From Straminergon stramineum (lineage: Eukaryota > Streptophyta > Bryopsida > Hypnales > Calliergonaceae), in contig OY987273.1 of assembly GCA_963920665.1 (NCBI GenBank), forward strand, positions 16,184,501 through 16,248,500: DNA of 64,000 nucleotides. Reading direction: 5' to 3'. The notes beneath the pieces are model-generated. The model was given only the letters and a program-made list of their open reading frames with translations, searched no databases and was not told where the DNA came from. Of this stretch, positions 25,509 to 52,206 are shown in pieces. A program made the position numbers and the translations under genes. The number at the start of each line of letters is the position of its first letter. Within the stretch, counting starts at the first letter, position 1.

Positions 25509-25536
25509 AACATCATATTCATTAAAATGGGAGAGT
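25509..25536. repeat. Terminal inverted repeat, left (giant element)
   Basis: AACATCATATTCATTAAAAT followed by GGGAGAGT. The reverse complement of the right end begins with the same 20 bases and then GAGAGTTT. Confidence 0.85.
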
Positions 25537-25653
25537 GTCGCCCTCTCATATTAGTATTTGGCCTTCAAAGGTGCAATTAGTGAATTGAGTGAGTTGTAAT
25601 TTAGCTTGATGATTACTTAATTAATTAAATTAAAGTAGCAATTTCTATTGAAA

Positions 25654-25680
25654 TGAGAGTCATGCAATGAATATAATGTT
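25654..25680. repeat. Internal degenerate inverted copy of the terminal repeat
   Basis: TGAGAGTCATGCAATGAATA followed by TAATGTT resembles the right-end terminal sequence (CTCTCATTTTAATGAATATG then ATGTT) and points inward-out at about 145 bp from the left end. It could be a second transposase contact site or a decayed terminus. Confidence 0.4.
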
Positions 25681-25684
25681 TTGA

Positions 25685-26040
25685 AAAGAAGATTGTATTG
25701 TGTATGGTCAAAAATTGCATGTCTTTTGCAAACAAGTATATATAAAATGCCATATGAAATATATTAATATGGTGTACATATTGCACTTGCAATCTAAATG
25801 TTGCAAGTGTAACGTCCAAACATATTACTCCCCACAAAGAAACCAAAGCTTTGAATACTACTCGTAGTAAGCTATAGTTAAACATTCATGAATCTAAATC
25901 TCCAACCCTTCATTTACAAGAAATCAAAATGATACCCTTCATAGTAATATAAAAGCATATTGTATAGGTATAAGAAAACAAATAACACTCTACCATATGT
26001 AGCTAACAACATATTGAACCTGATCCAACTCATCGAACGC
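25685..26040. other. AT-rich left subterminal region
   Basis: There is no coding signal between the left end of the giant element and the stop of the transposase relic. It probably contains the transposase 3' untranslated region. Confidence 0.4.
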
Positions 26041-26045
26041 TACAC

Positions 26046-28889
26046 TTAAGACAAAGTATACGAAGCCAAACTCTGGTTGATGATTTCAATTTGAGTAGCC
26101 GGGATCTTGAGCAAACATTGGCGTGTGTCCTTTCTAATTTGAGACTTCCACGCTGTCATGAGAACATTCGTTTCTTCCCAAATAGGTGGATCGGCTATAT
26201 CAACCTTCCAATGTAAACCTCTTTTACTGTCCCATCCAGTATTGAAGTCTTGAACATCTTGACTCCTCGATGTTGGGTGAAAGTATTGAATGAGAACACA
26301 ATTCGATTTCTCAGGATTATAGTTCGGATCAGACAATGCCCTTGCAATCCAAACTGGTCGAGTGTCACCATCGACGGGTCAAATTGCGACAAAGTAGCCT
26401 TCAAAGAGATCTCGACCCACCCTAAAGGATGGTTGTGGGCAACCCCGCAAAGGCCCAACGTAGGTGTCATCCTCTCCAAACTCTTCACGATCCTTTCCAT
26501 CTTCTCCTACTTCATCCACTCGAGCCGCTTGAACATGAGCTGCCGGCCAAAAACCATCCCTCAGAATAGTAGAAGTAGCTACTGGTTCCAATAATGTTAC
26601 CTTCACGCCCCGCCAATAGTAGACCAAATGCTCATAGCGCCTTCGATATTCCCCAGTGACATTTGCATTGCACAACTTGTCCCAATATTTGACAAATCCA
26701 GATATCCCTTTCAAAATGTCTTCCACGCCTCTCATAGGACGCTGTGGAACTGGCAATGGTACTCCACGAGGCCACAAACTTCGCCCTTCTACATCTTCTT
26801 TCCTCAATTTGATGCCTCTGCCATCCTACCCTAACCAGTTCTCATCGGTGCACAACAGTTTGTACTTCATGACTGGACACCCCGCTGAATCTAAGTAGAA
26901 CTTCACTTGTTGTGACTTTGTATGTCCAACGAGTATCTCATCTCTGTCCACAAATGAACCTGCAATGAATCCCTTGAAATCAGGCACCTCTTCTATAAGA
27001 TGAGGGATAGTAGGAATGGATTCCACATCCATGAATGACTTCATGAGTGCAGGAACTGTAGGGAAATTCTCCTTCTTCAGCAACATGCTCCATCTTCCAA
27101 ATAGCACATCAATGTCGTCATGTATATGACCCACAATCATGAAGTTCACATACACTTCACGGAAGATCTTGTTTGCAACAAGTAGAGACCAAAAATAGAA
27201 AACATATATGTTCTTGTTGTCCTTGGTGGCATTGTCCATTTGCACATTTGGAATGGGTGGCAACGACATCGCTGGAACTAAGGTAATTGGTGGAGGAGGA
27301 AGGGATGCTTCACACATCTCAGCTCCCTTAAGTACTACACCAAACAAATTTGTCAACCTCGACCTCACAAACAATTGCTAAGAAGAAGACTTTGGTGGCT
27401 CTTCCAAATCTCGTAATAGTTTGGCCATGGAGCCAATGGTGTAGTGTGAATCGTGGGGAAATAGATCCAAGCCGTAATGTGCATAGCGCACATCAGCATG
27501 ACCATGCGCAATCATGCTAGTCACGGACATAGGCAACTTCACTAGGCTACCAAGTTCTTCACTCTTGTGGGAGAAGACTGGAGAAGCGGTTTTAGCATGA
27601 TCCATCTTGTCATGCATAATCCTAAGGCACTCATGTGGGGAATTATGCGATCGGTAACGATTTGCATAGTACAACTCCCTATGAGCACAATTAATGGCAA
27701 GATGCTTGTCCAACTTTCGCGACCACTTCAAAGCACTGTGAGACCCAGAAAATGCTCCCTTCCTTAGTTCCTGCAATTTTTTCACAAATAAAGCACCGAG
27801 AAAAATTATCTCCTAGCTTTTTCACATCGTACTTTGGAAACCTGGATGATCTAATCTTGATCAAGTTAGAAGTTGACACATCCTTCAACCCAAAAACAAC
27901 ATTCGCTTCATTAATTTTTTCAATTTGATCCTTCCACTGAAAGGTAGGCAGAAGAATCATGGACATGACCTTATCCCTAGACTTGAGAGTCCCAGTACGA
28001 TGTGGCATGTGATCTGCCTCTTTGTCTAAAATGTACTTCAATGTTGCGGTAGCTTGTTGAGTGTGTTTCCTTGGCTTCACCAACCCTGAATTATCATGTG
28101 CCATTGCTTCCCGACCATTATTTTAATACGTCTGGTAGCAATAGAATGTGGCCTCTGGGACCCCGGAAATATGCATCCATGCTTTCATACACACATTAAC
28201 CCCCTCAACCGTGACCATCCTTCTCCCTCGGGAGTCCCGATGAACTTGTCTGTGCACCTCCGTCTTCATGAAGGCTCTATGCTTGAACATTGAATTCTGG
28301 TACATGCATTCATAGAAGGCTCGAATCTTCTCCCTTGGAAATGGATGAACGCAATTTTGGCTACAACAAACTTTGCTGGACACTTCATTGATAGATTCTT
28401 GTGTAAGGAGGTCCTTTGATTTCAGAGAGGTCTCACAAGGTGGATTTCGGATGACGCTCGTATATGGACGTGCAGATGACAAGGAGGGCAGGTTTAACAA
28501 ACTCACTTGGATTCGATTGAAATTATCCCTAGCCTCATGGTCGTGCAGGCTTGCCCCACGGCAATGAACAAGCTGACTAGGTACGCTATCAAAGAGTACA
28601 CCTGCTCCAAAGGAATGTCAACTTTGGAATATATCTTTGAAATGTGCACTGCAACATGAGTATCTCCTAGAGGACCATTGGCACCAAGAACCAAATCCGA
28701 GTTCACACTGTGGCAAGTACCTTCTCCAACAAGTATGCCTTCATTGTTATAAAGAGTGACACACTTTGTATTCCATTGGCAACGTGGAAGTCCTTCGCAC
28801 TCTGGAATGCCCACATTCATCCCCTCAAGAGCTTGGAACTCGTCATCTGATGAGTCCATTGCATCAAGAGGAATGACATGGGAGCCCAT
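26046..28889 (-). pseudogene. DUF7869-type DDE transposase, broken
   Basis: The minus strand is nearly open over 2.8 kb. The N-terminal part (LPRCQWNTKCVTLYNNEGIL, VGEGTCHSVNSDLVLGANGP) resembles the DUF8039-like segment of plant transposon proteins. It is followed by a basic Cys segment (VCCSQNCVHPFPREKIRAFY) and a nuclease-like core with PNVQMDNATKDNKNIYVFYF and VYVNFMIVGHIHDDIDVLFG. The QxDN...ENKN...GHxHxDxD pattern is what I associate with DUF7869 RNase-H-fold proteins. The C-terminal part includes WDSKRGLHWKVDIADPPIWE. Breaks: TAA 28,123-28,125, a frameshift in an A run near 27,790, TAG 27,378-27,380, TAG 26,826-26,828 and TGA 26,379-26,381; a GTGAGT donor near 28,505 may explain one more frame change. 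It sits next to the left end of the giant element and is its likely transposase. Family naming is from memory. Confidence 0.7.
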
Positions 28890-28977
28890 AATTCCTACAG
28901 ATCAAGATAATACAGCATTGAGTTCACTTGTAGACAAGAACTAAGCATCAATTGGCATCCAATAATATTTAAAATTT

Positions 28978-30052
28978 CCAATTCAGATTGGCAAGACCTG
29001 AATTGCAACCATTGGATACATTATCTTGAAAATATCAATTCAGATTATCAGAAACTAAATTAAATATATCAAAACTAAACTCTTGACTTGCATCGATACA
29101 ATTTGAATTAACATTAAAACCAAAACACTGCGGAAGATGTCGATTCTCATTGTCCCAATCCGAATTGCAAAGCAAATCGGAAGATGGAAGTTAGTGAACA
29201 TTTAGATCAACAAGACTTGAATTATAAACAATGATTAAAGAACCAAGATATTTTGACTTCTAATAAATGAGACTTCAATGGCGTTCTACATTCACAGATT
29301 TAGAATTTGTGTATTCAGCTCAATACGACTTGAATTAACGTTTCACGTCATAGATTGAGTCCATATCGATTAACTTTAGTAGGACATTAGTTCTAGTCAA
29401 ACATTCCTCATCCGAGTCCATCAGGTGTGCAGTATGTTCACTTCTACAATTTTTGTACATAATGATTCAAGTCATTATGACTTGACTTATACCTAATACT
29501 TCAGAATCAAGAATCTCTCGATGTAGGTATGTTTAATGGACATTGTGATATATCGTTTAGATTTACAATATGTCAATTCAAGTCGATACGACCTAAATTG
29601 TAATCGAAGACTTCAGCTTCAAACTTTTAGATATTTAGTTCAGTAAGATATGCATTATGAATTTTTCAACAGATTTACAACATGTAAATTTAGATTGGTA
29701 CAACCTGAATTGCATTCAAAGCCTTTCAATTCAACATTAAGTTGATTAAGGTCAATGGTTAGTTTTTCTTGAATATAGTAAATTCAAGACAGGTTGATTT
29801 AGGTCGGTACGACTTGAAATTGCAATTGCATTTCAAATATTTACGAACCTATATTTCCATTTAGTTATTTACTAAATTGATATATATGCTCAGGATTTAT
29901 TGGAAATGTAGATTCAGGTCGGTACGACTTGAATTGCTATTTGAAAATTCATATTCCATTATTTTTCAATTTATGTTGAGTACGATTGCAGTCAACATAA
30001 ACGTCTACAAATTCATCCAAACAATGATTCAAGTCATACCGACCTGAATCAC
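28978..30052. repeat. Degenerate ~111-bp tandem array with a palindromic core
   Basis: A dyad of the form ATTCAGGTCG..CGACTTGAAT recurs at about 28,980, 29,091, 29,201, 29,313, 29,464, 29,574, 29,685, 29,796, 29,911 and 30,026. Most steps are 110-115 bp, with one step of 151. The clearest copies are GATTCAGGTCGGTACGACTT at 29,911 and CAATTCAAGTCGATACGACC at 29,574. Sequence between cores is weakly repeated (ATTTACAACATGTA variants). The array lies just upstream of the minus-strand transposase start, so it could be its promoter or a transposase-binding subterminal array. Confidence 0.8.
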
Positions 30053-30059: not shown

Positions 30060-33000
30060 ATATAACCCATGAATATCATGAATTGACTGGATCTAAAGGA
30101 ATTCTATTGATTTCCCATCGAATTGAAGGGGTCCAGGTTTTGCGGCGACAAATTAGGAGCCCCTTTCACACGCATCACTTCTTCCACAAATTTTGGAATG
30201 CAATTGCCTTCAACAAGACAACTCTATCGAAAGACATGGAAATGCACATAGGCGTATAATGAAGGACGCATCACGAAAATGCATCGACCTTATTTCAAAT
30301 ACGGAGTCCAAAGTCATATATCCAAGCATGGGTGCACTCTCAACAGTGCAACTCTAATGAGGAATGAAAAGAAAGCTACATTAGTGCATGAAGTATAGCT
30401 AGAAACAACAATGACAAAAATTTGAGCTACTTTACATGAACTACAACAACAAACTAGAATGACAGAAATTTGAACTACTTCACATGAAGTGCAACTGCAA
30501 ACCAAAAAGGCACAAATTTTAACTAATGCATATGGAATGCGAAGAATACTACCAAAAGATAGAAGCACAAGACGCCTTCGTCACAATTGATGCGAAGATC
30601 TTCAACGACAATGTGACACAACCGTGAAACCAAGCACAAGAGAGAGAGAAGGAAGGGATCATGAAGACAATAGATAATGAGAGTATAATCTCTAAAGCAT
30701 GTGTGGACTTCCACGGGTCTTCTTGGCAGGGGAAAAGAGGCACCAACGGGAATGAAGGACTTTGAATTTCCATCCTTCTAGGGAAGATTCCTCTTCCACT
30801 TGGGAGCACTTTACACATTGGTTTTAGAGGGGGGGCAGTCTGCCATCTATTTTTTCCCGAAGATTCTTCTTCCATCTGACAAAGTAATGTGGACTGAAAA
30901 TTACGAGGCAAACATTGTTCTATTTTTTCCTATCCATTGTCTTTGGGAACAAGGACATGATGGGGCTTTCCTTTTTTTAGCACTTTTGTCCTTAAAGCAT
31001 GGGCTAGTGACTGTGGGAATCCTCCTATTTCGAACTGTCTGGGATCACCTACTCTAAACAAAGCAAAAATATTAGTTGCAAGTCAAACTACAGTGAAAGA
31101 TCTCTCCTTTCTACACAAATTTTGGGGATGATTACTTGCCCTTGTGTCCTATAGAGAAGGATTCTTTGCCAATTGTTAGCAAATAAATGGTTGTTGAATT
31201 GTTTATGGGATAAATGAAAAAATCACCTAAAACAAGGGCAATTATTGAGTATGGTAGGTGAGAGTTTAATGAATATTTTAATTATAAGTCACATGCAGAT
31301 GATTTTATATTCTTAGCATTTATGGAAATGAAGTACATGTCTAAAACGTGACCTTACTTTTTCATAATTAGATAGATGAGTTCACGCTTTTTGGGTTTAT
31401 GTTATGTTTAGGATTAGGGTTTAGGGGTTAGGGTTTAGGTCCACATCTTTCTTTGGAGAAAATTAGATGATGAAACCAAATAAGGATTTGTTACTATAAA
31501 ACTATTTTGTTTCTTATATGATTGACATTGTTAGTATACAAATTAATTGTCAAAAGTTTAAAAGCTTGCATGTATTCTTTATGTCCAAAATATTTAAAAG
31601 TTGTAAATGAATTTTGTCTTGTGGCATTTCATTTTTAGTTACTCGATTAATCTTGCCGAAAGTTTGGTAATGAAATGAACGAACTAGTTGTCAATAATTA
31701 AGATATGAAGGATTTATTGAATTAGAAATGTTGGGAGTATTCGGGGGTTTAATTCGTGTTGTCATTTAGTTCTAAAATGACCTAGTTGATGTTGTTTTAT
31801 GAACACAATTTATAAGGAAAAGAATATAGAATGTACACTAAAATGAATCAATGGCAAATTAAAGAAGTAGAGTTTACATTGTTTTATAGCATTTTTTGTA
31901 TTGAATGTTCTTGAATACACTTAACTAGTGTTTTATCTTTTTTTCAATGCATTACCAATGAAACATTGTTAGGATCCTTTCATATTATATGGCCTTGATA
32001 GTAATTACCTATAATGCATTATAGTCCAATGTCAAAGGGATTATCTAGTTTTCATGTAGAAAGTTCTTATAGTGGTATTTTGAAGGAATCCATAAATGTA
32101 ATTATAATGAAGGCAGTAATAGTTTAGAAAATATATGTATCCTCGAGCAAGGTACCTTACTTTTTAATCTTTTTGGTAAACATTGAAGATTTTTTTATTA
32201 TAAATAGAATACTGTTAATGAATTTTACAATTATAATTGGAGGGCACTTCTCAAATGAATTTTTGAAGATCACGTAATAGTGTTGAAATTCTTCATATAT
32301 ATGGTGAATATTGTCAAAGACATACAGAACCCAACATTTTAAAACACTTGTTCATTTTTTTAGTTGACTTTGGTCTTCACCTACCTTTTTTGCCATTTTC
32401 ATTTGATGTAATTTTTACAAAAATTGTCCTATAAGCCATTTTAATGCCAACGCCCCCTACATGTGATATAGGAGTTGTGTACATGGGGCTTCAACTTCTC
32501 TTGAATCATAATTTTATCAATTTATTGTAGTCAATAAGTACCCTACATTGAACATAATTTGAAGAAAATGTTTACTCCAATTTCTAGAGATTATAGTAGA
32601 AGTAAAGCATTTTATGAATTTATACAAGCTTTTATAAATAATTATTGCTCCTTTGTGTATTCTTTCTAGTATGGATTCTTACCAATTTGATGACCTTCCT
32701 CAATTCAATTTGTAGTGAATGTCCAAAGTACTTGCAAATTCAAACTTCTACCATGCTTGCATAATTTACAATGCCAACAAATAATAATAAATCACTAACA
32801 TTGTAAATGTCTGTTTGTCCCATCATTAATAGTTCTATTCACAAATAAGGAATGCCATACACACCTTCAAATCAACTATTGGAAGTACATGAAATTTTGT
32901 ATTTATTATACAAGGGTAATGGTTAGCTTTGGATACCAAAAACATTGTTTAAAATACAATATCAATCCATTCCATAGTGTTAACGAACTTCCTCTTTTAA

Positions 33001-33581: not shown

Positions 33582-33589
33582 CTTAAAAC
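33582..33589. repeat. 8-bp target-site duplication CTTAAAAC, left
   Basis: CTTAAAAC here and at 40,854-40,861 flank the complete hAT element exactly. The 8-bp length is diagnostic for hAT. Confidence 0.95.
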
Positions 33590-33599
33590 CAGGGTTGAC

Positions 33600-33795
33600 A
33601 AATCTGAACGTCCGCCCCGAATTCACGTCCATCGTCCAAACGTCCGGACGCACGAACTCCAACGGACATAGCGTCCCTAGTGCCGTCCGCAGGCGGACGG
33701 CGCAGTTGCGGCGGACGGGCGGGGCGGATGGTGAAAGGCGAACGGGCGCGGCGGACGGTGGAGTGCGGACAGTGGAGGGCGGACGGGGGGTTAAA
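33600..33795. repeat. hAT subterminal GCGGACGG-rich array, left
   Basis: GGCGGACGG, GCGGACGGGC and GCGGATGG words recur about every 10-20 bp in very GC-rich DNA next to the left terminus. Such subterminal motifs are typical transposase contact sites in hAT elements; that role is inferred. Confidence 0.7.
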
Positions 33796-34155
33796 GGATT
33801 AGGCCATTGAGTAACGAGGTTCAATGTTTATTTATCAATGTTTTTACCAATTGCAGCATGTCATTTGAGCTTAGATTTTTGTTTTTCATATATTTCAATT
33901 GTCATGTAATGTAGTAGTGTATGTTGCTTCATTCAAAAGATAAAACATATTGTGCATTTTTAATTTTTCTATGAAATTTCAGTTTCATTTTGAAACAAAA
34001 TCAAATTTAAAATTCTAATACATGAACGAGATGTATATCATCAATAAACAAACAATTTTTATAATGAAATGATTGAACAATACATTCTCAATATGTGCTC
34101 AATATATCATGAGCAACTAAGCAAAAAAATATTTAAGCTTCTAATTCCTCAATTC

Positions 34156-37100
34156 CTATAGACACCAATCTTCATCTCCTTTCACCTCAACTCCACTACT
34201 CTCTCCGTTAGCTCTCCGTTCAAAATCTTCATTGTCCGAATCATCTTCCGTATCATCTGAATCAAGTATCGTGGTCTTCTTCAAGCCTTTCTTTAAAGTA
34301 GGTTTACTCCCTTCCTTCGAATTTAATTTCTTTTTATTTACTTTCATAGAACCATGACAGGCTTTTTGAATAGGAACTTTTCTTTTCCTTCTATTGAAGG
34401 AAGCATTGACATCCTCATTAAGAGGGGTCTTTTTCTTCACCGGAGAGATAGCAAAAGGCTGCATATCTTTTTTAATTTCCCCCTTACTAGATTCTCGAAC
34501 CACCGCTTTCGATTTGGAGTCGACCTGTCCGTGAACGGTTATCTCCACTTTGACTTTCTTTTGAAGTGGTGGAGTGCTGGTTGTTGCTTTGATGGGTTCT
34601 CCTACCATTCGTTTTTCTAAACGACGAGCACGCAACATTACCAACAGTGGTTGATCACTATCCATATCAGTGAGGCATGTATGTGATGGCACTACTTTTT
34701 GTACATTACCGCCTGTAGAAATTTCTTTCGAAATGTTCATTAGACGTTTTCCATACCCAAAGCTTTGAAAACCCTCTAATCTTGTGATAGCTGGCTTCAA
34801 CGCTATTGGTGGAAGAGCGCTAGATCTCTGTACCTCAGAAATTGACTTCATTGGCTCCTTTCCTTTATCATTGTCCACAATACTTGATTTTGCGAATGCC
34901 ATCTTGGTTGAAGCACTCTTCTTCTGTACCTCAATATTTGATTCACCCTTGTCGGCACTGTTTTGGCCCACATCTTTTGGGACGTCCAACTCACTGACTT
35001 TGTGTCCTTTTCTATCATTTTCTTCGACATTTTCTTCTACCATATCTAGTGCTACAGACCGAGATTTCGAAATTTGAACATCTTCATCTGTTCTGGCATT
35101 GCCAAAAGCATCTCCATTCATTTCCACCTCCTCAACAATAACAATTCCCTTTTTTGATAGAACAGTTTCGCTACTCATGTATGCAGTTCCGTCACAATAT
35201 GCTGCTATTGAAGGTAGATTCTCCTCTACCCCTACTTCATCCTCATCTTCTAAAAAATCATACAAATCGTTCGCATTGCCTTCAACATTAGCATAGCGGT
35301 CATTACGATTATGATACGTATCATCCACCAAATTGGGAATGTCTTCCATAGCGTCTTCATCTTCTGACGGTACTGCACAACACAAGTCATCCTCGCCATT
35401 TACTACTTTAAAGGCCCTTTCCAAATCCTCGTCATCATCCTCATTATCATCTTCGTTCATCGGCCTATCCGAATCCTCTGACTCCACTGTCTCCATGTTA
35501 TCGTTGTACCATTTCTTTTCATCTTTTTCTTTTGATGCGTTTAGGACTTTGGAATTAGTATACGCACACACCAAATCTGCTGCTCTCTCTGGCTTCAATC
35601 TGTTTCGCGATTTGTTGTGAACAAAAGAATAGCTGCTCTAATTCCGTTCACATGAAGATGATGACACTGGTTGGGCCAATATCCTCTTTGCTAATGGAGC
35701 TATGAACTTGCCATAAGCACCTTCAAAATCCCACCAAGCATGTGCCGACAACATTTGTTCTCCCGGATTCAACATATTGTGGAATGGAGGTTCCTTATGT
35801 TGAAAAGCCACGAATTCTCGAACCACTGCTGCGTACTCATCCGGTTTACATATTTTCTCCAAAACACGCTTACATGCTGACATTACATCTGCATCATGGG
35901 CTAGTTCTTTGTCATATAGAAGGTATGGATTCAAGAGAGCTGCGGCAGATTGGAGATCGTTAGCTACCATTTCCCTTCGCACATGAAATGACTGTATCAA
36001 TGGAATTGCCTTGCTCTCTTCCAAACAAAATGGCGGACTTTCTAATCCATACACATGCTTTTCTAATTTCCTCATAATATGCAACACCTTCCCCATACAT
36101 GGTGATTTTGAATCCAAATCACGGAGTGCACATATAATTGGTTCAACCATCTCCACATAATTGATAGAACGGTTCCAAAAATGATCATCAAGAACAATTC
36201 TCCTCACTGCTGCTGCAAGGTTTCTTGGGTTGACTTTGGCTCCACGTTTCCTCTTGAGCGTACGTACATACTCTGCCCATTGAGGATCCACCACCGTTTG
36301 TTCCAATGGTCCTCTCAATTTTATCAAACGCTCCATCATGATAAATTGAGAGGCAAATCTTGTATCCCCCGGCATCAATAAACCAAGATTTGGCGAATAC
36401 TTCCGTAATAGAGCAAGTGGCATATGTCTCCTTTTGATAAATTTGGCTACAAGTATTCCTTCATTCAATTTTTCAGCAATCCAATCCTCTGACCCCCAAT
36501 CCTTAAGCAACAAATTCAACGCATGAACCACACACCCTTGGTAAAAAATATGAGGATACTTTTCAGATATCATATTCCATGCAGAAGAATTCACAGGGGC
36601 GTTATCTGTGGTTACTAACACAATGTTCTTGGGCCCTACTTATTCAATGAATTTTTCCAACACTGCTGCCAAATACACCCCATTCTTTTCACAACCACTC
36701 GTATCTACTGATCCAAGAAATTCTTCACCTGCGGATGATACAAGCATGGCATTGATCAAAGGACGTGTGGTCACAGAGCTCCATCCATCAATAGACACAG
36801 TTGCTCCAAATTTTCGAATGCTGTCTTCAGTCCGTGTGAGCAACTGTGTCTGAATGTTGGTCTTCGCCTCGTTCAACAATTTGTAACGAAGCTCGTGGTA
36901 TGATGGAGGAGTGTATGGTCTACCAAACACAGCCGTTCGCTTCACTGCTTCTTTAAAAGCTGCATTTCGAGCCACAGAAAATGGTATATTTGCCGTATAA
37001 AAAAAATTCGCCCACACAGAATGCAATTTGCGTTTATAACCTTCTTCAAATCCAGTCACTAAGCTGCTTTGTTTATGAGGCCTAGAACTTGATGCCTTCA

Positions 37101-37509
37101 GGGTTTCACGATCATGAGAAGCTTCTGTGGTGAAAGTTTCTTTAGTTCGTGCAAATACTACTTCTCTTGATGCTGGAGACGAGTCTTCGTGGGTTGATTG
37201 CCATACACCCCTTCCGATCGACAATTCTTGGGGGTCCATAGGTGCAGGGTTGCCATCTACAATATCGGTTACAACACTTTTTGGAAAAATTCCTTCGCAA
37301 CGAAGAAATGCAGCACGGACTACTATCGTCAATCGCGGACAATTCCTTACTCCTGTATCGCGTACACCATTTGGACCGGAATACCCTAAATGGCTCAACA
37401 TACAACAAGGCTTTTTGGTCATAACCACCTTGCAAAGCCTACATTGTACCTTATTGTCCGGTGTCACACTATACCAAGGAGAAAAATCCCTGGTCGGTTT
37501 AGGCACCAT
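34156..37509 (-). pseudogene. hAT transposase (BED finger, DUF659-like, dimerisation domain, long charged tail)
   Basis: One reading frame of 1,118 codons is interrupted by only two stops, TAA 36,640-36,642 and TAG 35,638-35,640. Residues about 16-60 form a BED-like zinc finger (VQCRLCKVVM...MLSHLGYSG). The DUF659/catalytic part has ATVSIDGWSSVTTRPLINAM, IVLVTTDNAPVN and QGCVVHALNLLLKD. The dimerisation region ends SSSSCERN-stop-SSYSFVHNK, where the family has Trp, so the TAG is TGG to TAG. After it comes a tail of about 440 residues, first acidic then Lys-rich, unusually long for hAT (typically 600-800 residues in total). The start at 37,509 precedes the zinc finger closely. It probably could move when intact; here it is a recent pseudogene unless the stops are suppressed. 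Confidence 0.9.
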
Positions 37510-37807
37510 AGTGACAATCTTACTTTTTAGCTATATTTAAAAACCAAAAAATACTTTTAATCATAAACCTACAATGTAACAATGTTCACAATATCAATAA
37601 AATCAGTCGTAAAAAGCCTTGCAAAACAAAGCCCCCCCATCCACTAAACTATGCATTACCAAGCAAGGGACACAATAAATTGCAACTCCTAGCCCTTAGA
37701 AATCTTAGCGTTCAGTTTCTTGAGAGTGAATAGGAAGGCTTCTCTTCTAACTCTTATAGTCCCCCAACAGAAGCTGACCGTTCACTTAGGGTTCACATTT
37801 AAAAAAT

Positions 37808-38045
37808 TCAAATTAACGGTCTCACAAAGCGAGCGGATGGGGCGGTGTTAGGGGCGGGTGGTCGGGGCAGACGGCCGGACACAGCGAATGCAGCGGATGT
37901 GCGGGCAGAGCGGGTGGACGATTTTGCAAGCGGACGGGCAGGGCGGACGGGCGGGCAGAGTGGGCAGACGGGGCGGACGGGGAGGACGGACGGGGCGAAC
38001 GGACGGGGCGAACGGGCGGGCAAAGTGGGCGGACGGGGCACTTCA
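37808..38045. promoter_or_regulatory. Intergenic GCGGACGG array upstream of the hAT transposase
   Basis: The same GGGCGGACGG words as in the two subterminal regions are concentrated in the gap between the transposase start (37,509) and the end of the RING gene (38,455). Position and motif suggest that transposase binding could regulate its own promoter. Long frames in all directions across it are artefacts of the GC-rich repeat. Confidence 0.5.
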
Positions 38046-38454
38046 CCCAAGGATCCACCCCTTTTCACATAATACTTTTTATTTTACTATTACAAATCAG
38101 AGAAGAACAAATGAATCATGAATGCATCCATATACAAATAAATTCAAATTCATACATAAAACTATTTTCTTAAGCAAAGAAAAATATATTGTTTGTATAC
38201 ATAAATATATAGGTGATCGCAAAATACAAAAAACATAGCTTCACTACAATTACTTTATATTACTTGATCCTTTTAAGATCTAAACACTTCACACTTTTTT
38301 TTTTTTCCCTCAATGGAAGAACCATTGCTTTCAAAAAACACTATTCTATCCTCAAATCCTACTTTCCATTGGATGGACCACTACCTTCTCCCATATGACG
38401 AGTAGAACTTTTTGTAGTGAGGCGTTCAGCTGATTTTTGACGAGTCGTGAACAT

Positions 38455-40006
38455 CTAACTTGGATGAACTATTAGCCCTCCTATTTGAAGTTCCTTATCC
38501 ACCTTAGATATTTGTTTTTTCATTTCCGGAGAGAAGTCATCATCGTCTTCACGCTTCCTTTTTTGTTTTCTCCTCGGTGATAAATCAACTTCATCTGCCT
38601 TCAAGGCTCTCAAGTTACTCTCCACTCGATCCACCATCGCTTGAACTACCTCATCATCTCCCTTCCCTTGCCAGGCCATGAGGCGATTTCCATCCAATAA
38701 GAAGGCCTTCCAATGTCCTATAATATCAACGATGCGCTTATCAAATGCTGCTGCAACGTCTACAGATGAATGTGGTGTACTCACTGGTCTATCCGTATTG
38801 TAAACAACACGGACCTTTGCAACCTCTTCCAACTTCGACAACAAGAGGGCCCGACCTACGAGAGTGGTTATAGGCCGCATATTGCTCATCGAATTCATCT
38901 CCATGGTTCACCTCCACCCAACTGTCATTTGGTCCTCTCTCCACTTTCTTTTCTGGAAAACGAAAGAACTTTTTGTGTTGCAAACTCCAATGTCCTCCCA
39001 TATTGCGACAAAACAATTCACCGGCTGTGTCATCTACGATACCTCGAGCCCGCAATTCCACCTCTCTATTGTGAGTCATCCACACGTCGGGATCCAGTGG
39101 TTGCTGAGATTCCTCGTACAATCCATGCATCCGTTCATTTGAATTCCATGTGAGTGGCCTCCCCCAATGTAGATAATTTTGGAACTTGAACGGCCCTTGA
39201 TCAAGTGGAAGGGTCCAACGATTGTATTCGTGGTTTGGAGGCATGGCTTCCAAGATACCAAACATTTCGTAGAACCTCGGAGTCAATGGACAATGACACT
39301 CAGCACAGACGGAACGAACTAGCGATGCTTTCACGATGCAAGTAACATGGAAAGTGTGGCGACATTGGCCCATAGTTACAACACCTTCCGGTCCGAAGGG
39401 GCCTTGGCAAAGGCTACAAGAACCTTTCAAGATTGGAGAGGCTAGATCACAAGCATGCACCACTTTCTTGTCTTCGTCTTTGATGTGTGTTGAAAGTGTA
39501 TTGTAAGGGACCCATCCTTCCTCTGCTTCTAAGGCCCAATTGATGTGTGTATCTTCGTCCTTCTTGGTGTGGTTTAACCGCTCAAACATGGCATCCATGT
39601 CTCCCCAACATGTGATCTCCGTATATCCTTTAGAGGGATGTTGGTCAAATATAGTCTTGAACCGATTCAACGAGCTTTCAATGGCATTGCAATTTTCAAT
39701 GGACTCCATTGCCAATGTCTGAAGACCTACCATCGCTCGGGATACTACAAAGGGTTTGTCTTGGAGTTTTTGTACCCATGCTAACCATCGAGACTCCAAG
39801 CCACTAGAAGGCATCAATTTCTCCAAATTCAAGGACAATTTCAATCGGTTCAACTCCGATTCAACAGAAACCTTTGCTTCAATTGCCTCCTCCAATTGAT
39901 GCTTTAATTCTTCAAGTTCATGATCCTCGGTTTGTGTCTCCGCATTCATGCAAACTGTTGAAAGCTTTTCCATTGATGGTTGAGGTGTCGCTTCTAATCT
40001 GCTCAT
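38455..40006 (-). pseudogene. hAT second gene: coiled-coil RING-H2 protein
   Basis: The frame from 40,006 begins MSRLEATPQPSMEKL. It has a coiled coil (ELEELKHQLEEAIEAKVSVE...), then a RING-H2 finger with all eight ligands in order: CSLC, CRHTFHVTC, CAEC. After it comes a conserved block (NRWTLPLDQGPFKFQNYLHW). A frame change near 38,865 leads into LVGRALLLSKLEEVAKV and a basic tail (RRKQKRKREDDDDFSPEMKK). RING-H2 fingers usually mark E3 ubiquitin ligases, so the role is inferred. Copy 2 has the same gene in the same place (53,944-59,043), so it belongs to the transposon. The true start may lie beyond the N gap, because the copy-2 gene extends much further upstream. Confidence 0.8.
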
Positions 40007-40038
40007 CTCATGGCTTTCTTCGACATTTGTAATGTCAG

Positions 40039-40238
40039 NNNNNNNNNNNNNNNNNNNNNNNNNNNNNNNNNNNNNNNNNNNNNNNNNNNNNNNNNNNNNN
40101 NNNNNNNNNNNNNNNNNNNNNNNNNNNNNNNNNNNNNNNNNNNNNNNNNNNNNNNNNNNNNNNNNNNNNNNNNNNNNNNNNNNNNNNNNNNNNNNNNNNN
40201 NNNNNNNNNNNNNNNNNNNNNNNNNNNNNNNNNNNNNN
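40039..40238. other. Assembly gap, 200 N
   Basis: Exactly 200 undetermined bases interrupt the 5' part of the RING gene. The round number suggests a placeholder of unknown true size. Confidence 0.98.
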
Positions 40239-40534
40239 GACTAAGGGAAATCCCTATCTCTATGTCCATGAATTTCATTTGAATAGGAAAAAGAACTCTC
40301 CCCATCAAGGTTCTCTGTCACTAAATTTTTAAGAAATGAATGCCCAATTCTAAATTCTCTATTGAGGGTTTGGAGATGAAAATTTATGCGTTTTTTTTTT
40401 CTTTTTTTTTAATTACAAATTTAGGGAAATCAAAGGTTACTTCCCTACAAATTTAAAGTAGAGTAATATTAGGGGTGTAGAACTTCCTTGTTCTGATTTT
40501 TATGATTTTCATCTACAATTCTATAAAGGACATG

Positions 40535-40840
40535 GAGACAGTTTGTGAATGTGGTCTGGGCGGTCCGGGCAGCGGGACGGGGAGGACATGGCGGTCGAGG
40601 GAGACAGTCGGTCGCGCCGGACGAGCAGCGGCGGACGGTTAGTGGCGGACGGGTAGGGGCGGACGTTTGAGGCGGACGGGCGGACGGGCGGCGCGGGACG
40701 AGCAGCAGCGGATGTATGGTCCAGTGGCGGACGGTCTGGGCAGACGGTCGGGGCAGACGGCGGGAACGTCCACGACGTTTCGCTTGTCATCGGATGTTGT
40801 GGACCCCCGCGTCCGCGTCTGCGTTCGGACGTTCGAACGT
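40535..40840. repeat. hAT subterminal GCGGACGG-rich array, right
   Basis: GGCGGACGG, GGCGGACGTT and AGACGGTCGGGG words recur up to the right terminus, mirroring the left subterminal array. Confidence 0.7.
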
Positions 40841-40853
40841 TGTGTCAACCCTG

Positions 40854-42280: not shown

Positions 42281-42344
42281 CACAACCTTGGGTCTTGTTT
42301 TGCGGGATTGGGGGTCACAGCAGACAGTGAAGGGGTCGTCTCTC

Positions 42345-42770: not shown

Positions 42771-42774
42771 CATT

Positions 42775-43804: not shown

Positions 43805-44190
43805 TGCAGTTCAGGTTGGGGCGGCCTAAACTTCACAAAACTTAAAAGAAATCCTTGAACTGCAACTTTTAAATCACCATTAGCATAAGTGCAATTCAAG
43901 TCGTCCCAACTTGAATTGCACAGAAGTCCAAAAAAAATAGTTCGTGTCACCTGTAAAGCACCATTAACGTAAGTGCAATTCAGATCGTCTTGACCTAAAT
44001 TGTATAGAAGTTCGAAGAAAGCCTAGCCGTGTCACTTATAAAACACCATTCACGTAAATGCAATTCAAGTCGTCCCAACATGAATTGCATAGAAGTCTGA
44101 AGAAAGACAGGCCGTATCACCCGTAAAGCACCATTCACGTACATGCAATTTAGGTTGTCCCATCTTGAATTCCACAGAGGTAAAAGAAAT
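43805..44190. repeat. 84-85-bp tandem array with the same palindromic core
   Basis: Five units start at 43,805, 43,889, 43,973, 44,058 and 44,143. Each contains TGCAATTCAAGTCGTCCCAA followed by CTTGAATTGCA or a close variant, plus a conserved flank (CACCATTCACGTAAATG). The core dyad matches that of the 28,978-30,052 array, while the flanks differ. It precedes the ParB-like gene. Confidence 0.85.
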
Positions 44191-44536
44191 TTAGCTCATA
44201 CACAGTTAGTCAAATACTTTCATTACTACTACTTAGTTCAGTTGAAAATAAAAAGGATAAAAATCAAAGAGAATCCCCTTCAACGCCATCACTATTGGCT
44301 AAAATCAGGTCAACCCAAATTGAAATACACAACTTCATATTATAATCATATATTAGACAAAACATGAGTCATACAACATGACTAAAGATCAAATCCCAAT
44401 GCAATACAGAAGAAGGAGAAAATTAAAGAAACAAACGAATGGACTATGCACAATTCATACACTCATCAAATAAGTATCAACTTGATAAACTGTAAACAAA
44501 TAAAAACCATTAAGAATTTTTTTGACAAAAATTAAT

Positions 44537-44570
44537 GTGCAATTCAGGTCGGGGCGACCTAAACTGCAAT
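44537..44570. repeat. Dispersed palindromic site
   Basis: GCAATTCAGGTCGGGGCGAC followed by CTAAACTGCAAT, a nearly symmetric copy of the core. Confidence 0.8.
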
Positions 44571-44741
44571 GCCAGATAACAATAACAAAGTGCAATTATC
44601 ACTATCAGTATCTTGACCGAAAATATGAATGATAACAAACATCAATCCCCAACATCCAATACTTCAAGTGAAATTAATCTTAACAGAATCTATTTAGATA
44701 AATAGAAATGATAACACTAGAATATCAGTCGTAATGTATCA

Positions 44742-44771
44742 ACGTTTAGGTCAGGCCAACTTGAACTGCAA
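44742..44771. repeat. Dispersed palindromic site
   Basis: CGTTTAGGTCAGGCCAACTT followed by GAACTGCAA, a diverged copy just upstream of the ParB-like gene start. Confidence 0.65.
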
Positions 44772-46320
44772 ATAGCCATAGGAATTGGATTCCATTCATG
44801 GACAATATGTCTGATTTGAACGAGTTCTTTGAAACAATGTATGAACTCACAGATTCAATGTTTATATAGAATGGAAGACCAAATTCAAAATTTGAACGCC
44901 TATTTTACTCATCTGACCACTACAAGACTAGAGGACGAGTTTGACGATGACGAGATGATGATTGAAGGAGATTACTGGGAGTTTAGTGATCCCGACCAAG
45001 TCGAGGCCTGGAGTCTGACTATGGTGCCCCATACAGACAATATGGTCTTTAATATGAAATATAAGAACTCAAAAAATTTTATACCACTTTCTTACGATGA
45101 GAAGGTCAAGGACATTATTAATGATGTCTACCTAGAGATCAAAGTATGCTACGTGACAACCAAGGGTGAATTGGCAACCGACAAGCAATACCACTTCACA
45201 ATTACCTTAAACTTGGAGAAGATCCCTTTCACGATGGTGCCTTTTCTTTAGAGTCTGGAGCCTATGCCTTATAGTAGCGAGATCAAAAACCTAGAGAAGA
45301 AGGTAGACAAGAACTATTATAGTAACGTCGACGGTTCACCTTTGATAGGAAAGTGTCTCTGTACTAAATTGCGCTATCTTTTCAATTCATTCGAAGTACT
45401 AAAAGAGAAGCACCCAATGCAACAATCGTTTCTGGCTCCTTGAATAGTCTCTATTGAATTCAGTAGTTAGGGTGAAGGTCAACCATCTGTGGGGACACAA
45501 ACGCTCGGATCTCAAGGTCGGAGGAAGAGGAATAAGAAGCTACCTCCAACACCAACATCTGTGACACGAAGCAGTCCACTGGGCTCAACCTTTGCAAAAA
45601 AACCTGCAGAGAAGACATCCGAGTAGTCGGGTCCAGGAGAATTGAGTTATGTAGATTTGATGGCAATGGTGCCCTAAGCATTGCAGACGAACCGCAGACT
45701 AGACTTCAAAACTGTGAGTGCGGTCTATAAAAAGTTTTGGGAGACATGCATGGATGTATATTTTTTAGGGGTGGATGAAAAGAAAGTGCTTCCCCTCGAG
45801 CAGTTGATTGAAGCACCCGCTCAATTCAACATCCGAGTCTTAGAGACCCATTTGGTGGAGTCCATGATGAACTAGCTTGTCAACATCCCAGACAAGAGCA
45901 CCAAACAAACCCTCTGCGTGATGCTAGTTGGTCCTACAAAGAAGCCAACAAAGTGGGAAGATATTCAACATGGATTGTTCTACATCATCAACGGTCAGCA
46001 TAGCGTTGCTGCTAGCAGGAAGATGATGGAGGAAGATAGCAGGATTGACGAGACGTCCCAAAAGGAGTTTGAGAAGTGGAATTGTTTTATTGTGTGGTCA
46101 AATGATGTTGAGAAGTTGCAGTCCATCTTCGCCTATTACAATTGCGTTAACCACTTTCAAGCAATACAACCGTCCTAGGCGACTAACATTCTCGGAGCAA
46201 GAACCGTATGGGTGAACATGGGTAGCCCAAAGAATCCAAAGGACGCAGTTGCTATAGGAACAGTCCAAATGGCCCGATGAAATAGAGAGTCATTCAAGCA
46301 AACAACAAAATTTAGGGTGA

Positions 46321-46352
46321 ATAATTCAAATCGGGTCGACCTGAACTGCAAT
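46321..46352. repeat. Dispersed palindromic site inside the ParB-like gene
   Basis: ATTCAAATCGGGTCGACCTG followed by AACTGCAAT lies between coding blocks; the surrounding frame is not clearly coding, so it may be in an intron. Confidence 0.7.
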
Positions 46353-47827
46353 AGTAGTAGTGCCATCTTCAATGCGCAAGTGCCTATGAAGCATAGGACA
46401 ACTGAGCAATTGATTTTTTGAATATTGTCTTCATTTATTCGAAGCTTGACACGTTGTTGAATAATGATATGTAGGAGTTTGAGAAAGTGATGCATCAACG
46501 CTTTGCTATGATAGATGTGAACAAGAATCACATGCTATCAAAGAAGAAGGGGGCGGAAGATAAAATGAGACTTATAAACAAGCTAAAGATTATTACCGCA
46601 CCTGCCCATGTATATAATTTGTGGAGTGAAGTCATCACCAACTCTATGCACGGATAGCTCTTCAATCCAGACACGCTCATGAAGTTCAACGAGAAAGAGA
46701 ACTAGAAGCAGGAGAGTTGCACTCTTAGTCAAGATTATTTCAAGCCATTAGGAAATCTCAGCTATGATGACTTGGGGAAGTTGGCAAAGCATATTTTGAA
46801 TTAGTTGGGAGTCAAACGCACCCTCAAGTATCCGAAGGTGACTATCAAAGCGATATCGTCGGTCCTCGATAGCTATTATAGTACTAAGGAGTGGGTGGAG
46901 TGTCGAAAACGAAAGCAACTGGTGAAGAGAGAGCTTCACCAAATTGACCCAAACCTTGGATTGTTCAACACCAACAACGAACTTATAGTTTCCAACTGGA
47001 GGGAATTCAAGAGAACCTGCAGTATTACAAGTGCAACTATGAACGTGTTGTTAGAGAGGCCCAGTGAGGCTTTTTTTGCACAAGCAAAGCAAGTGAAGAC
47101 CAGAAACAAAACAGCTACAGAGATATCACCTTTAGTAGTAGAGTTTTTTAGAGTCTTCCTCGAGAAACAGAATCATTTTGTAGCTCCAACTAGCATCACT
47201 TATCTCCGACCCTACCGAATTTTGGAGAATAAGCATTTGTTGTGGCTGTGCATGGCATGGACTAGCACCACGGCCAGGGAGGTGAAGTTGGGGGTCATTG
47301 ACTTCATAACTATCCTGGGCATATTGTAGAAAGAGAATTCCACAATGGAGAAGACATTCTTCTACAAAGTCTTGACCTCCATGGAAAAAATGAAGCAGCC
47401 TCTCTTGGAGGAAGTGAAGTCCTAGTTATTTATTTGTGATGATGAGAAGGACCAGGCCCAAGTTCTTGCATATGTCGAGAGGAATGAAGTTCTTAAGACT
47501 TTCCACATGCAATGCGCAGATTATTATTCAGCAAAGAACGAACATCTAATGGATTTGCTAGCAAACAACGCTAAGGCGCTCAAGAAAGTGCTGCTCATGT
47601 TTCTTCAAAGCCTGGATAATGTGTACAAAGCAAGAATATATCCGAAGTTCATAGCTCCAGATACACTGGTGTACAAAGAAGCATGAAGATACAATGAGCT
47701 GCCTTTCAAAATGTACAATATGGAGCTCAAAATGGAATTCTACCTATGGGTTGTGAAGAAATTTTGTAATCGAGAGTCTAGTGTCTTCTCTGTCTTTGTT
47801 GGTGGCAAATTGACGTGTGTTGCATTG

Positions 47828-48020
47828 GTAAGTGACAGAATGCAATTTAGATCGGTTCGACCTGATCTGCACTATTGGACGTAATTCATTTAGTTTCTCC
47901 AGCAATCAAATTTCATAGAATGTCACCATTTATTATACTTCATGCTTATTCAGGTCGGTTCAACCTGAAATGCAATAACCACGTAATTCTAAACTAGACA
48001 TTGATGTGAACACATTGCAG
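47828..48020 (+). other. Intron of the ParB-like gene carrying two palindromic sites
   Basis: The donor GTAAGTGACAG follows GTTGCATTG, and the acceptor GAACACATTGCAG precedes ATGAGTTCAG. Joining the exons keeps frame (KLTCVAL then MSSVNVYIVVPD). Two copies of the palindrome lie inside, at 47,840-47,872 (GCAATTTAGATCGGTTCGAC...) and 47,945-47,976 (ATTCAGGTCGGTTCAACCTG...). Confidence 0.75.
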
Positions 48021-49089: not shown

Positions 49090-49694
49090 ATTGGGTGTTA
49101 TATGTAGATATAGTATAGGTTTAGGATTTTTGCAGTGGAGAGACATGTTTACCAATGAACTATGGAGTGTCAGAGTTTAAATTTTAATTGTATATATTCA
49201 AACTCAATTCCTGAGCTAGTATTATATAGCACTCACACAGAGTATCATTTTGTAAATCATGAATTGCAGGGCCACTGAATTTGCCAATTGTCTCCGCATC
49301 ACCGTGTGCACCTACTATATAATCACATCCTCTATCATTTCCTCTCTCTGTAACTAAAGATGAAGTCCATCGGAGCACGGCCCCCAGAGTTGAAGTGCAG
49401 AATGTGGCTATTGTTCAAGAATGAAAAGCAGCCTTCACAATACCTTGTAGATCCTTTGAAAAACAAGTAAGCGTCAGTCTTCTATCTGTTCATACTTCGA
49501 TTGGTCCTTGTATATATTGCCACTGTGCTCTACCATTTGTACTTTTTGGTGAGTACCAATTTCTATGTGATTTCGCTATACGTCTGGAATGAGACAATAT
49601 AGCATTATAACTATCTACGCATTCGCCCGTTTGATGGTAGGAATCCGGTCCTCCATCTGGTCTTGGAGGAACTTCGGAGGGCGTCAATCGGCCA

Positions 49695-50440
49695 TTCAGG
49701 TCTAGGGTGGTAGAGAAGTGGATCAATGTTATCTTGGACCTAAATGGCATTCTATGTGTTTGTGAAGATTGGAAGTCCAAGGGGTTGTCGCATAAGCGCT
49801 TCAAAGACTCCTCAAGATTGCACTCAGCCATAGAACCCGCTTTAGTAGAACCAAAGGTTGTGTGGGTGAGACCCACTTGCTTTGATTTCCTCTCAGAGCT
49901 AGGAAAAATTGTAGTGATATCGGTGTGGAGTTCTATGAAAAAGTCCACCACTGAGATGATTTGCAAATATCTTCTTCGAGGCTTAGTGGGACCCTTTCTT
50001 ATTCTTGGGCAAGACTCTTGTCAAACTATTAAGAACAAAGATAGAGCCAGAAGGTTGTCTTCCTTGAAGGAGCCATGGACAAATAAAGACTTGTTCTTGA
50101 AAAATCTAGATATGTTATTCAATGGCTCTAGAGGAAGCTTTAGTGCCAACAATACTGTCATTGTGGACGACGGCCCAATAAAACATATAATGAACAAGTC
50201 TGATAATGTCATTCTACCAAACTCTTAGAGTTATAGGGGAAATGGTCCGAGGGATACTTTTCTACTTGAAATACTGCTTCCTTGGTTTAAGCGTCTACAT
50301 GTTGCTCATGATCAAGGGTTGAAGTCATTAAGGGAAAACAGTCCAAGAAGAATTGGGCGGCAAATGCTATGCGATGAAAGGAATCGAAAAGAATACAACA
50401 AGCTCATGGACGTAGTTTGTGCGTCTTCTAGTGTAAATTA
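49695..50440 (+). pseudogene. FCP1/NLI-like phosphatase domain protein
   Basis: The plus frame from 49,707 reads VEKWINVILDLNGILCVCED near its start, WVRPTCFDFLSELGKIVVIS and VWSSMKK in the middle, and NNTVIVDDGPIKHIMNKSDN towards the end. It stops at 50,226-50,228; past that TAG the frame continues (LLEILLPWFKRLHVAHDQGL) to about 50,430. The order DLxxxL, WxRP-x5-FL, V-x-SSM, VDDxPxKH matches FCP1/NLI-interacting-factor HAD phosphatases. The catalytic motif is DLNG, where the family usually has DLDxT, so the second Asp is Asn. Whether this was already inactive in the living element is unknown. It lies downstream of the ParB-like gene on the same strand. Confidence 0.7.
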
Positions 50441-50489
50441 GGTTAGCTCCTAAAGAGCTCAATTCAGATTGGCATGGTTTCATTAGACT

Positions 50490-50520
50490 TTCATTTCAGC
50501 TCGACACGACTTGAATTGTA
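50490..50520. repeat. Dispersed palindromic site downstream of the phosphatase
   Basis: ATTTCAGCTCGACACGACTT followed by GAATTGTA. A weaker neighbour at 50,459-50,482 starts CAATTCAGATTGGCATGG. Confidence 0.65.
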
Positions 50521-50699
50521 CATATTTGTTAACATAGTTATGAATGAAATTGTTTCTTGGTTTCATGGATGCAATAGTGTTCATGCATTTACATTGGTTT
50601 GACGTTAGTCCTTTGATACATGTCCGAGCAAACTCACGCATGTTGTGTTCTTTGTTTTTACGCATTTGGATAGACCTTTGTTTTAATTTTAGTTCTTAT

Positions 50700-51300
50700 C
50701 AGATAATTGGCACTCCGACGACCCATGTCCTAGGAAGTGGACTTGCTTGCACAGCGTCCGCAGACTCCATCTGGGTCTATAGGCAATACTTAATCCTCAG
50801 CACTAGAAACTTCCTGGGATCAGCAACTATCGCGAATTCCACGATGGACTTCTCACCGAAGCCTATCAAGGACAATGTGGTTGACAGCCCTCCTAGTGGA
50901 AGGAAATGACACCACTCTCATGCTCCCCATCTCCATTGTGATCTATGGGCCATCCTACCTCAGTGACACCCTCCGACAAAGTCCCTCAGAGGAAGCTTTA
51001 TGAGGACTTGGGATGTCAAGTCGCTCCAGCAGTGTTGAAGTCTGAGGTTCCATCTATGACACACCATTCACTCCCCAATATAGCACCTTGGATTCCACGA
51101 CACCACGTACCGTCTAAAGGGGGGCAAATGAAGCAGTTGCACGATGGAGTATCTCGCAGTTGCTACTCGACTCCAATTTGGGATGCATGGAAGCGGAAGT
51201 CATTGGAGGCGTAGCGGCGGGACTATTGGCGTAAGTATAAAAAGATGGAAACAGGGTATAGTCGAGGACCAGAGATTTTGATGGCAGTTCAGTAAATCAA
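50700..51300 (+). pseudogene. Coding-like region after the phosphatase, family unknown
   Basis: Two frames look like protein: IIGTPTTHVLGSGLACTASA (near 50,702) and MGHPTSVTPSDKVPQRKLYE (from 50,945) through IPRHHVPSKGGQMKQLHDGV. They are in different frames, so one indel or intron separates them. No domain is recognised. Confidence 0.35.
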
Positions 51301-51596
51301 GAGCAAGTCACACTCGTAATAGTTGTCTATATGACAAATTTTGTTTTTGTAAATAAATGATAGCAATGATAGATACTACATAGAACCCTATGTGAGATAC
51401 AAGGATGGCTTCTTTCATGGGATCGTATGCCCTAAATCTAGGAAAAAATTTTGTACATTGTTGCAATCCTCATACTCAAGGATATGATGTTAGAGACTAT
51501 GTTGAAGGCATCTGCACCAATGAATGCAGTCCTTGATCTATTACAAACTGGGTATTCAAATTAAAGCACCTCATCTTCGTCAGTTGGAGCAGTCTT

Positions 51597-51890
51597 GCAA
51601 GTAGATTGCTTGTGAATATGAGGGCATGGTAATTGAATAATGAAGTGGATGTTGAACTTTGACTGGATCTAGGCAAGGAAGTTGTAGAATTAGAAATATG
51701 CAGGCGTCACTATAAGCATTTTCATAAACAGCAATCTAAAGAAGACTGTGAGGATTGCAATTTATGAGAATGCTCAATGGCGTCTGGATATTTGTTTTTC
51801 TACAACTTCCTTGCCTAGATCCTGCCAAATCTCATCATGCTCTTCATTCTTCAATCACCATGCCCTTGTCTTCTCAAGAAATCTACTTGC
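51597..51890. repeat. Long near-perfect hairpin (arms about 137 bp, loop 18 nt)
   Basis: The arm 51,597-51,735 is the imperfect reverse complement of 51,754-51,890. Shared blocks include GGATCTAGGCAAGGAAGTTG / CAACTTCCTTGCCTAGATCC and GGGCATGGT / ACCATGCCC. Both arms, read outward from the loop, encode a similar peptide (right arm LQLPCLDPAKSHHALHSSIT; left arm LQLPCLDPVKVQHPLHYSIT). It is therefore an inverted duplication of a once-coding segment. A transcript would form a long double-stranded stem. It lies 0.3 kb inside the right end of the giant element. Confidence 0.8.
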
Positions 51891-52178
51891 AGTGTCTAAC
51901 ACGTTTGATGGAGATCAAGAACTTAGTTGCTAGGAATGTAACTTACAATAGGCCATGTGTGTACAAGGATTTGTTGATAATATACATATAATACATAGTT
52001 ATTTGCTTATGATGTTTCATTTATTGGATTACAATTCACATTTATTGCATGATGTTTTGAAATTTTGTATTTCTTCAAAGGTTTTGTATGTGATTGTTGT
52101 GCTTTCTAGAGTCAAGGGACCACGTATTATTTTCACATTTACAATAAATAGTACGTTTAAAACTCTTATTTAAGTGGA

Positions 52179-52206
52179 AAACTCTCATTTTAATGAATAT
52201 GATGTT
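52179..52206. repeat. Terminal inverted repeat, right (giant element)
   Basis: AACTCTCATTTTAATGAATATGATGTT-type end; its reverse complement begins with the same 20 bases as the left end at 25,509. Confidence 0.85.

What the first reader, a model, noticed from the sequence alone, without database searches (positions are those of the whole stretch)
25509..52206. A 26.7-kb transposon-like unit proven by an interrupted hAT reading frame
Seen directly: inverted ends AACATCATATTCATTAAAAT, TAGG on both sides, and a transposase frame that stops at 25,504 and resumes at 52,211. Taking out the unit plus one TAGG gives HMPLAIFWTYKKDLNLLMP, collinear with HMPLALLRKYSPNLGLLMP in the second hAT copy. The empty site can thus be reconstructed within the window. 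Ends this far apart with a 4-bp duplication and a DDE transposase relic inside indicate a giant cut-and-paste element of about 19.4 kb before the nested hAT arrived.
Basis: partly seen in the sequence, partly recalled or inferred. Interest (0 to 1): 0.92.

Follow-up and report, generated by a model that had tools for sequence, protein, structure and literature searches.

The report
Giant moss transposon carrying ParB-like gene
The window holds one worn-out copy of a very large (about 19 kb) "jumping" DNA element that is repeated through this moss genome, and the element carries a bacterial-looking DNA-binding protein next to rows of palindromic DNA sites, which hints at a self-control system not expected in a plant transposon.

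Summary
Window 25509-52206 has 25-bp inverted ends (24/25 identical) and a TAGG duplication; it splits a hAT frame, and the empty site exists ungapped in other copies of that hAT. Without the nested 7.26-kb hAT it is 19,426 bp. The genome (a moss, by protein kinship) holds many relatives: the first 100 perfect end places make 19 convergent pairs 17-21 kb apart; 16 of 20 pairs read have exact 4-bp duplications; 8 of 10 read at length match the window element from both ends inwards (six differ in a middle of about 3 kb). Both families read carry a DUF7869 gene (predicted DDE/DDD-transposase fold), an opposite-strand gene with a ParB/sulfiredoxin fold, and an NIF-like phosphatase gene. New: 15-20 copies per family-1 element of a 29-bp dyad, mostly upstream of the DUF7869 and ParB genes, with subfamily-typical letters. 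Structure fits the Sola superfamily (transposase homology untestable here); a giant Sola1 element with a ParB-like gene is published from a brown alga. Best reading: giant Sola-type element with a ParB/operator-like control system. The window copy is dead.

The parts
25505..25508 (.). left copy of the 4-bp target duplication TAGG
25509..25533 (+). left terminal inverted repeat, 25 bp
   Evidence: 24-25 bp perfect ends in 20 of 20 other pairs read
26049..28901 (-). DUF7869 gene (PF25273), presumed DDD transposase; this copy broken by stops and changes of frame
   Evidence: Pfam 9e-31 on one piece; frames; 4 stop codons and 1 gapped codon against the 951-codon open copy; fold
28978..30052 (.). 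first cluster of 29-bp dyads, upstream of the DUF7869 start
   Evidence: reference copy
33582..33589 (.). left target duplication CTTAAAAC of the nested hAT
33590..40853 (-). nested hAT element, younger than the giant element (not part of it)
   Evidence: missing at the same place in two sister copies
43806..44770 (.). second cluster of dyads, upstream of the ParB-fold gene
44820..46418 (+). first part of the ParB-fold gene (broken here)
   Evidence: genome search: C11:16229320-16230918, 83% identity to the open stretch of the reference copy, 8 stops; fold
46336..46349 (.). dyad half-site at the end of that first part, in a presumed intron
   Evidence: intron inferred from the Physcomitrium protein P0134
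46500..47840 (+). second part of the ParB-fold gene (approximate bounds)
47842..47973 (.). two dyads just after the second part of the ParB-fold gene
49641..50225 (+). NIF/FCP1-like phosphatase gene
   Evidence: Pfam PF03031 7.9e-10
51596..51891 (.). about 300-bp imperfect inverted repeat near the right end, also in the family-1 copies joined
   Evidence: inverted self-matches
52182..52206 (-). right terminal inverted repeat
52207..52210 (.). right copy of the target duplication TAGG

Best explanation
The unit is a degenerate copy of a family of giant DNA transposons, of Sola type by structure, in a moss. SHOWN: 25-bp inverted ends, 4-bp duplication, empty site, full-length relatives, shared genes in fixed order, arrays of 29-bp dyads with subfamily-typical letters. 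INFERRED: the DUF7869 protein is the DDD transposase that binds the ends and moves the element by cut-and-paste with 4-bp staggered cuts; the ParB-fold protein binds the dyads as a dimer and, from sites upstream of both the transposase gene and its own gene, controls their expression (as the repressor KorB does on plasmid RK2) or spreads along the element as ParB does from parS; the phosphatase acts on a host protein such as RNA polymerase II, purpose unknown. This copy can no longer make its own transposase and could at most be moved by other copies.
Confidence: 0.8

Rival explanations
1. The two ends belong to different elements, or the assembly joined the two hAT halves across unrelated DNA.
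For: None found.
Against: Eight of ten pairs read at length match the window element from both ends inwards, same ends in the same order; exact duplications at 16 of 20 pairs; ungapped empty sites in the five other hAT copies read; dyads on both sides of the nested hAT and, at that stringency, nowhere else in the window.
Confidence: 0.01
2. The dyads are not protein-binding sites but hairpins (DNA or RNA) or remnants of tiny inserted repeats.
For: A 13-bp arm with a 3-base centre could fold back; changes that agree in both arms (25 of 30 dyads in A/E, 14 of 17 in B/C) would also keep a stem.
Against: Specific letters (TTCA..TCG) are kept beyond pairing across subfamilies; G.T mispairs are no commoner than A.C (61 and 59 cells); similarity drops to 0.28-0.40 from 30 bp away.
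Confidence: 0.2
3. The ParB-fold and phosphatase genes are captured passengers without a role in the element.
For: Giant elements often carry extra genes of unknown function (passages of PMC12477816).
Against: Both genes recur in the second family, at 24-50% (ParB segments) and 47-76% (NIF segments) protein identity; ParB lies beside DUF7869 in 35 of 48 loci, with pN/pS of 0.18-0.46.
Confidence: 0.12
4. The unit is an endogenous virus or Polinton/Maverick rather than a transposon.
For: Large size, several genes.
Against: 4-bp, not 6-bp, duplications (6 bp is recalled); none of the ORFs scanned with Pfam gave a polymerase or capsid match (not every ORF was scanned); three scans of viral contigs confirmed no relative.
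Confidence: 0.01

Closest known systems
Sola DNA transposon superfamily (passages of PMC10741241; Sola2 passages of PMC3627910)
   Same: 4-bp duplications, inverted ends (reported range 11-1124 bp), DDD-type transposase, some members over 15 kb, reported from the moss Physcomitrella.
   Different: Transposase homology could not be compared here; no held paper names DUF7869 or PF25273.
Sola1-1_Ec32, 21.5-kb giant element of the brown alga Ectocarpus (passages of PMC12477816)
   Same: Giant Sola-type element with a gene on the strand opposite the transposase whose product has a ParB-like domain.
   Different: The algal protein also has a DNA methyltransferase domain; none was found in the moss ORFs scanned. 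The passages seen mention neither palindrome arrays nor a phosphatase.
ParB-parS and KorB-operator systems of bacteria and plasmids
   Same: ParB fold, KorB among the matches; many copies of a palindromic site; sites upstream of genes.
   Different: Dyad is 29 bp with a 3-bp centre, not the 16-bp parS (abstract in listing); no ParA found in the ORFs scanned; the conserved motif is NGQHSVAA, not the ParB GERR box (recalled); a eukaryotic transposon.
KDZ and EnSpm giant elements of algae (passages of PMC12477816)
   Same: Size, extra genes, nested insertions, broken transposase genes probably served in trans.
   Different: Different transposases by name; no relationship tested.

Membership tests
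Sola superfamily | 4-bp target site duplications | tested here: met
   Window TAGG and 16 of 20 other pairs exact; of the 4 exceptions three differ by one base (GAAG/GATG, AACA/AACG, CTCT/CTTT), one is unlike (AATG/TGAT)
Sola superfamily | terminal inverted repeats | tested here: met
   24-25 bp perfect in 20 of 20 pairs read
Sola superfamily | DDD-type transposase | tested here: inconclusive
Sola superfamily | transposase homologous to Sola1, 2 or 3 | not testable with these tools
   I had no Sola sequence; founding paper not held
hAT (for the outer and nested elements only) | 8-bp duplication, hAT-type transposase | tested here: met
   Nested copy: CTTAAAAC, ends CAGGGTTGACA, DUF659 in both copies; the 8-bp duplication of the outer copy was not found; that DUF659 marks hAT-type transposases is recalled
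ParB/sulfiredoxin-fold proteins | ParB N-terminal fold | tested here: met
   Foldseek 7bm8 E 2.4e-4, 7ol9 4.5e-4, probability 1.00, though rmsd is high (8.8, 10.7); sulfiredoxin 3hy2 E 4.7e-3, TM by target 0.60
ParABS partition system | ParA ATPase partner | tested here: inconclusive
   No ParA match among the ORFs scanned with Pfam; not every ORF was scanned
ParABS partition system | ParB binding to palindromic sites | not tested
   Dyads exist; binding needs an experiment
Polinton/Maverick | 6-bp duplications (recalled) | tested here: not met
   4-bp duplications; also no polymerase in the ORFs scanned

The most novel reading that the evidence does not exclude
A lineage of giant plant transposons carries its own ParB-parS-like system: an element-encoded ParB-fold protein recognises many palindromic sites on the element, with specificity letters that shifted as subfamilies diverged, so that each subfamily marks, silences or regulates (or protects from host silencing) only its own copies.
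Probability: 0.5. Interest if true: 0.85.

Novelty: new variant of a known kind. Interest (0 to 1): 0.68.

Why it matters
It suggests a function (transposase) for DUF7869, a domain without one, documents a very large DNA transposon lineage in a moss, and shows a bacterial-type DNA-binding fold beside subfamily-typical palindromes in a eukaryotic element. That makes a testable case of how giant transposons control themselves, and of whether ParB-like proteins work in eukaryotes.

Tried and rejected
Composite or misassembled unit: rejected. Viral origin: no support; scans of viral contigs with P0016, A2 and A3 confirmed no relatives (83 and 14 pattern matches in the last two, none confirmed). 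PDB sequence search with the DUF7869 profile gave one match at E 0.47, taken as chance. Pfam gave only sub-cut-off matches (E 0.075 and 0.57) for the ParB-fold protein, and NCBIfam none. Search for the outer hAT's own 8-bp duplication gave no convincing pair. A test of whether dyads are conserved after insertion was undecided (4 of 8 comparisons each way). Paper searches for giant moss transposons, ParB in transposons and ParB/parS in eukaryotic elements: among the rows listed (the lists are capped; 10-20 rows of up to 300 papers, 11 of 11) I saw nothing on a plant ParB element; PMC12477816 (alga) was the closest. DUF7869 is in no held paper. Passages of PMC7466625, PMC6431247 and PMC11071193 added nothing decisive; no paper was read whole.

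Full report
Check of the observation. The ends, the TAGG duplication and the split hAT frame are as described. The two ends are identical at 24 of the first 25 bases. Joined flanks with one TAGG match 40 places in the same genome (40 scored of 284 candidates; 82-89% identity), every one spanning the junction; the five copies read are ungapped there. The nested hAT (33590-40853) has its own 8-bp duplication and is absent at that spot in the copies at C1:20619677 and C3:44208652. The ancestral element is therefore 19,426 bp.

The family. The window lies at C11:16184501-16248500 of a 326-Mb, 59-contig assembly. DUF7869 hits named with an organism are from Physcomitrium patens and Ceratodon purpureus, so the host is a moss by inference; the species was not identified. 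The 20-base end occurs 914 times with up to 3 mismatches, against 300 for the reversed pattern. Only the first 100 perfect places are listed: among them 31 neighbouring pairs under 80 kb point inwards, 3 outwards and 5 the same way, and 19 inward pairs lie 17-21 kb apart. Ends of 20 pairs were read: all have 24-25 bp perfect ends and 16 have an exact 4-bp duplication. Ten pairs were fetched at length. Eight match the window element from both ends inwards at about 78-95% by segment; in six of these a middle stretch (window 32796-33589 plus 40862-42985, about 3 kb) found no megablast match, in C1:20619677 and C3:44208652 most of it did. The other two are a second family with the same ends: C3:478327 had no megablast match to the window, and C3:20755410, not joined, was compared. 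The second family shares ParB-fold segments (24-50% protein identity) and NIF segments (47-76%) with family 1; C3:20755410 has DUF7869 at 67% DNA identity, while C3:478327 showed only a 21-residue match at its tail end.

The opposite-strand gene (44820-47840) has no Pfam or NCBIfam family above cut-off but 63 relatives; of those named with an organism two are Physcomitrium and one is attributed to an uncultured Leptolyngbya. Its model matches ParB, Noc, sulfiredoxin and KorB, locally and with high rmsd for ParB. An opposite-strand hit lies upstream of DUF7869 in 35 of 48 loci (83 ParB hits from 81 scored of 538 candidates). The NIF-like phosphatase (49641-50225) has 164 relatives. Several contig lengths recur among the DUF7869, ParB and NIF hit lists (for example 313938, 312168, 559682, 770944, 8979), which suggests, without proof, linkage in other assemblies. 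Against the open copy (eight comparisons each), pN/pS is 0.18-0.46 (ParB parts), 0.30-0.66 (DUF7869), 0.26-0.77 (NIF) and 0.43-1.54 for a further ORF.

The dyads. A half-site search (up to 3 mismatches in 14) found 27 hits in the window, all in the element and none in the nested hAT or flanks. The eight family-1 copies hold 15-20 dyads GCAATTCAGGTCG-3 bases-CGACCTGAATTGC, the window element 17, shuffled copies 0-1. In the reference copy 19 were found: eight upstream of DUF7869, seven upstream of the ParB-fold gene, one at the end of its first part, two just after its second part and one after NIF. Pairwise identity is 0.72-0.85 at the dyads and 0.28-0.40 from 30 bp away. Genome-wide: 991 hits per strand against 2 reversed; of the 52 distinct sites in its capped listing 47 fall in 24 of the 31 inward pairs (492 kb in all; I chose the 23 up to 26 kb and one of 42 kb), the other five are on C11, where the end list stops at 2.06 Mb. 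In five diverged loci (L049-L058; A and E, and B and C, are close to each other, so about three subfamilies) dyads of the same plan lie in the same two places. Arm letters: GC in 55 of 60 arms (A/E), GG in 29 of 34 (B/C), GC 8, GA 5 and AC 4 of 22 (D), AC 28 and AG 24 of 66 (family 2), GG 17 and AG 13 of 46 (window element); both arms agree in 25 of 30, 14 of 17, 4 of 11, 16 of 33 and 6 of 23 dyads. At that looser setting the reversed control gave 0-1 per group, the window outside 2 in 37 kb (its control 1) and the nested hAT 1. Against selection since insertion: between copies the dyads diverge more than their flanks in 4 of 8 comparisons.

Comparison with the known. Review passages describe Sola as DDD transposase, 4-bp duplications, ends of 11-1124 bp, some over 15 kb, found in Physcomitrella (PMC10741241). 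Passages of PMC12477816 report a 21.5-kb Sola1 element in Ectocarpus with an opposite-strand gene for a ParB-like and methyltransferase protein. The moss element resembles these; homology to a Sola transposase was not testable. I therefore file it as a new variant of a known kind: what I did not see described in the passages and listings is the subfamily-typical dyad array beside a ParB-fold gene, the phosphatase, and a role for DUF7869.

Noticed in passing
contig C11 (17.4 Mb, about 5% of the assembly), which holds the window: 22 of 48 scored DUF7869 loci and 38 of 83 ParB-fold hits lie on this one contig, as do 26 of the 40 hAT copies: perhaps a sex or otherwise repeat-rich chromosome.
   Followed up: partly
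44820-47840 versus 26049-28901: Between the same copies the ParB-fold gene differs far more at silent sites (pS to 0.26) than DUF7869 (to 0.09), as if the element were a mosaic formed by recombination.
   Followed up: no
56115-56489, and 38792-40240 in the nested hAT: Both hAT copies share a second gene region; the outer one has a RING-H2-like match below the curated cut-off, an unusual partner gene for a hAT.
   Followed up: partly
54288-54863 and 55308-55588: A piece of the right flank matches an insertion inside the giant element copy at C3:30465314: another repeat, unidentified.
   Followed up: no
51596-51891: About 300-bp imperfect inverted repeat near the right end, also seen in the family-1 copies compared.
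   Followed up: no
42441-42789: 54-bp tandem repeat array in the variable middle part of the element.
   Followed up: no
40039-40238: 200-base run of N inside the nested hAT, an assembly gap or withheld stretch.
   Followed up: no
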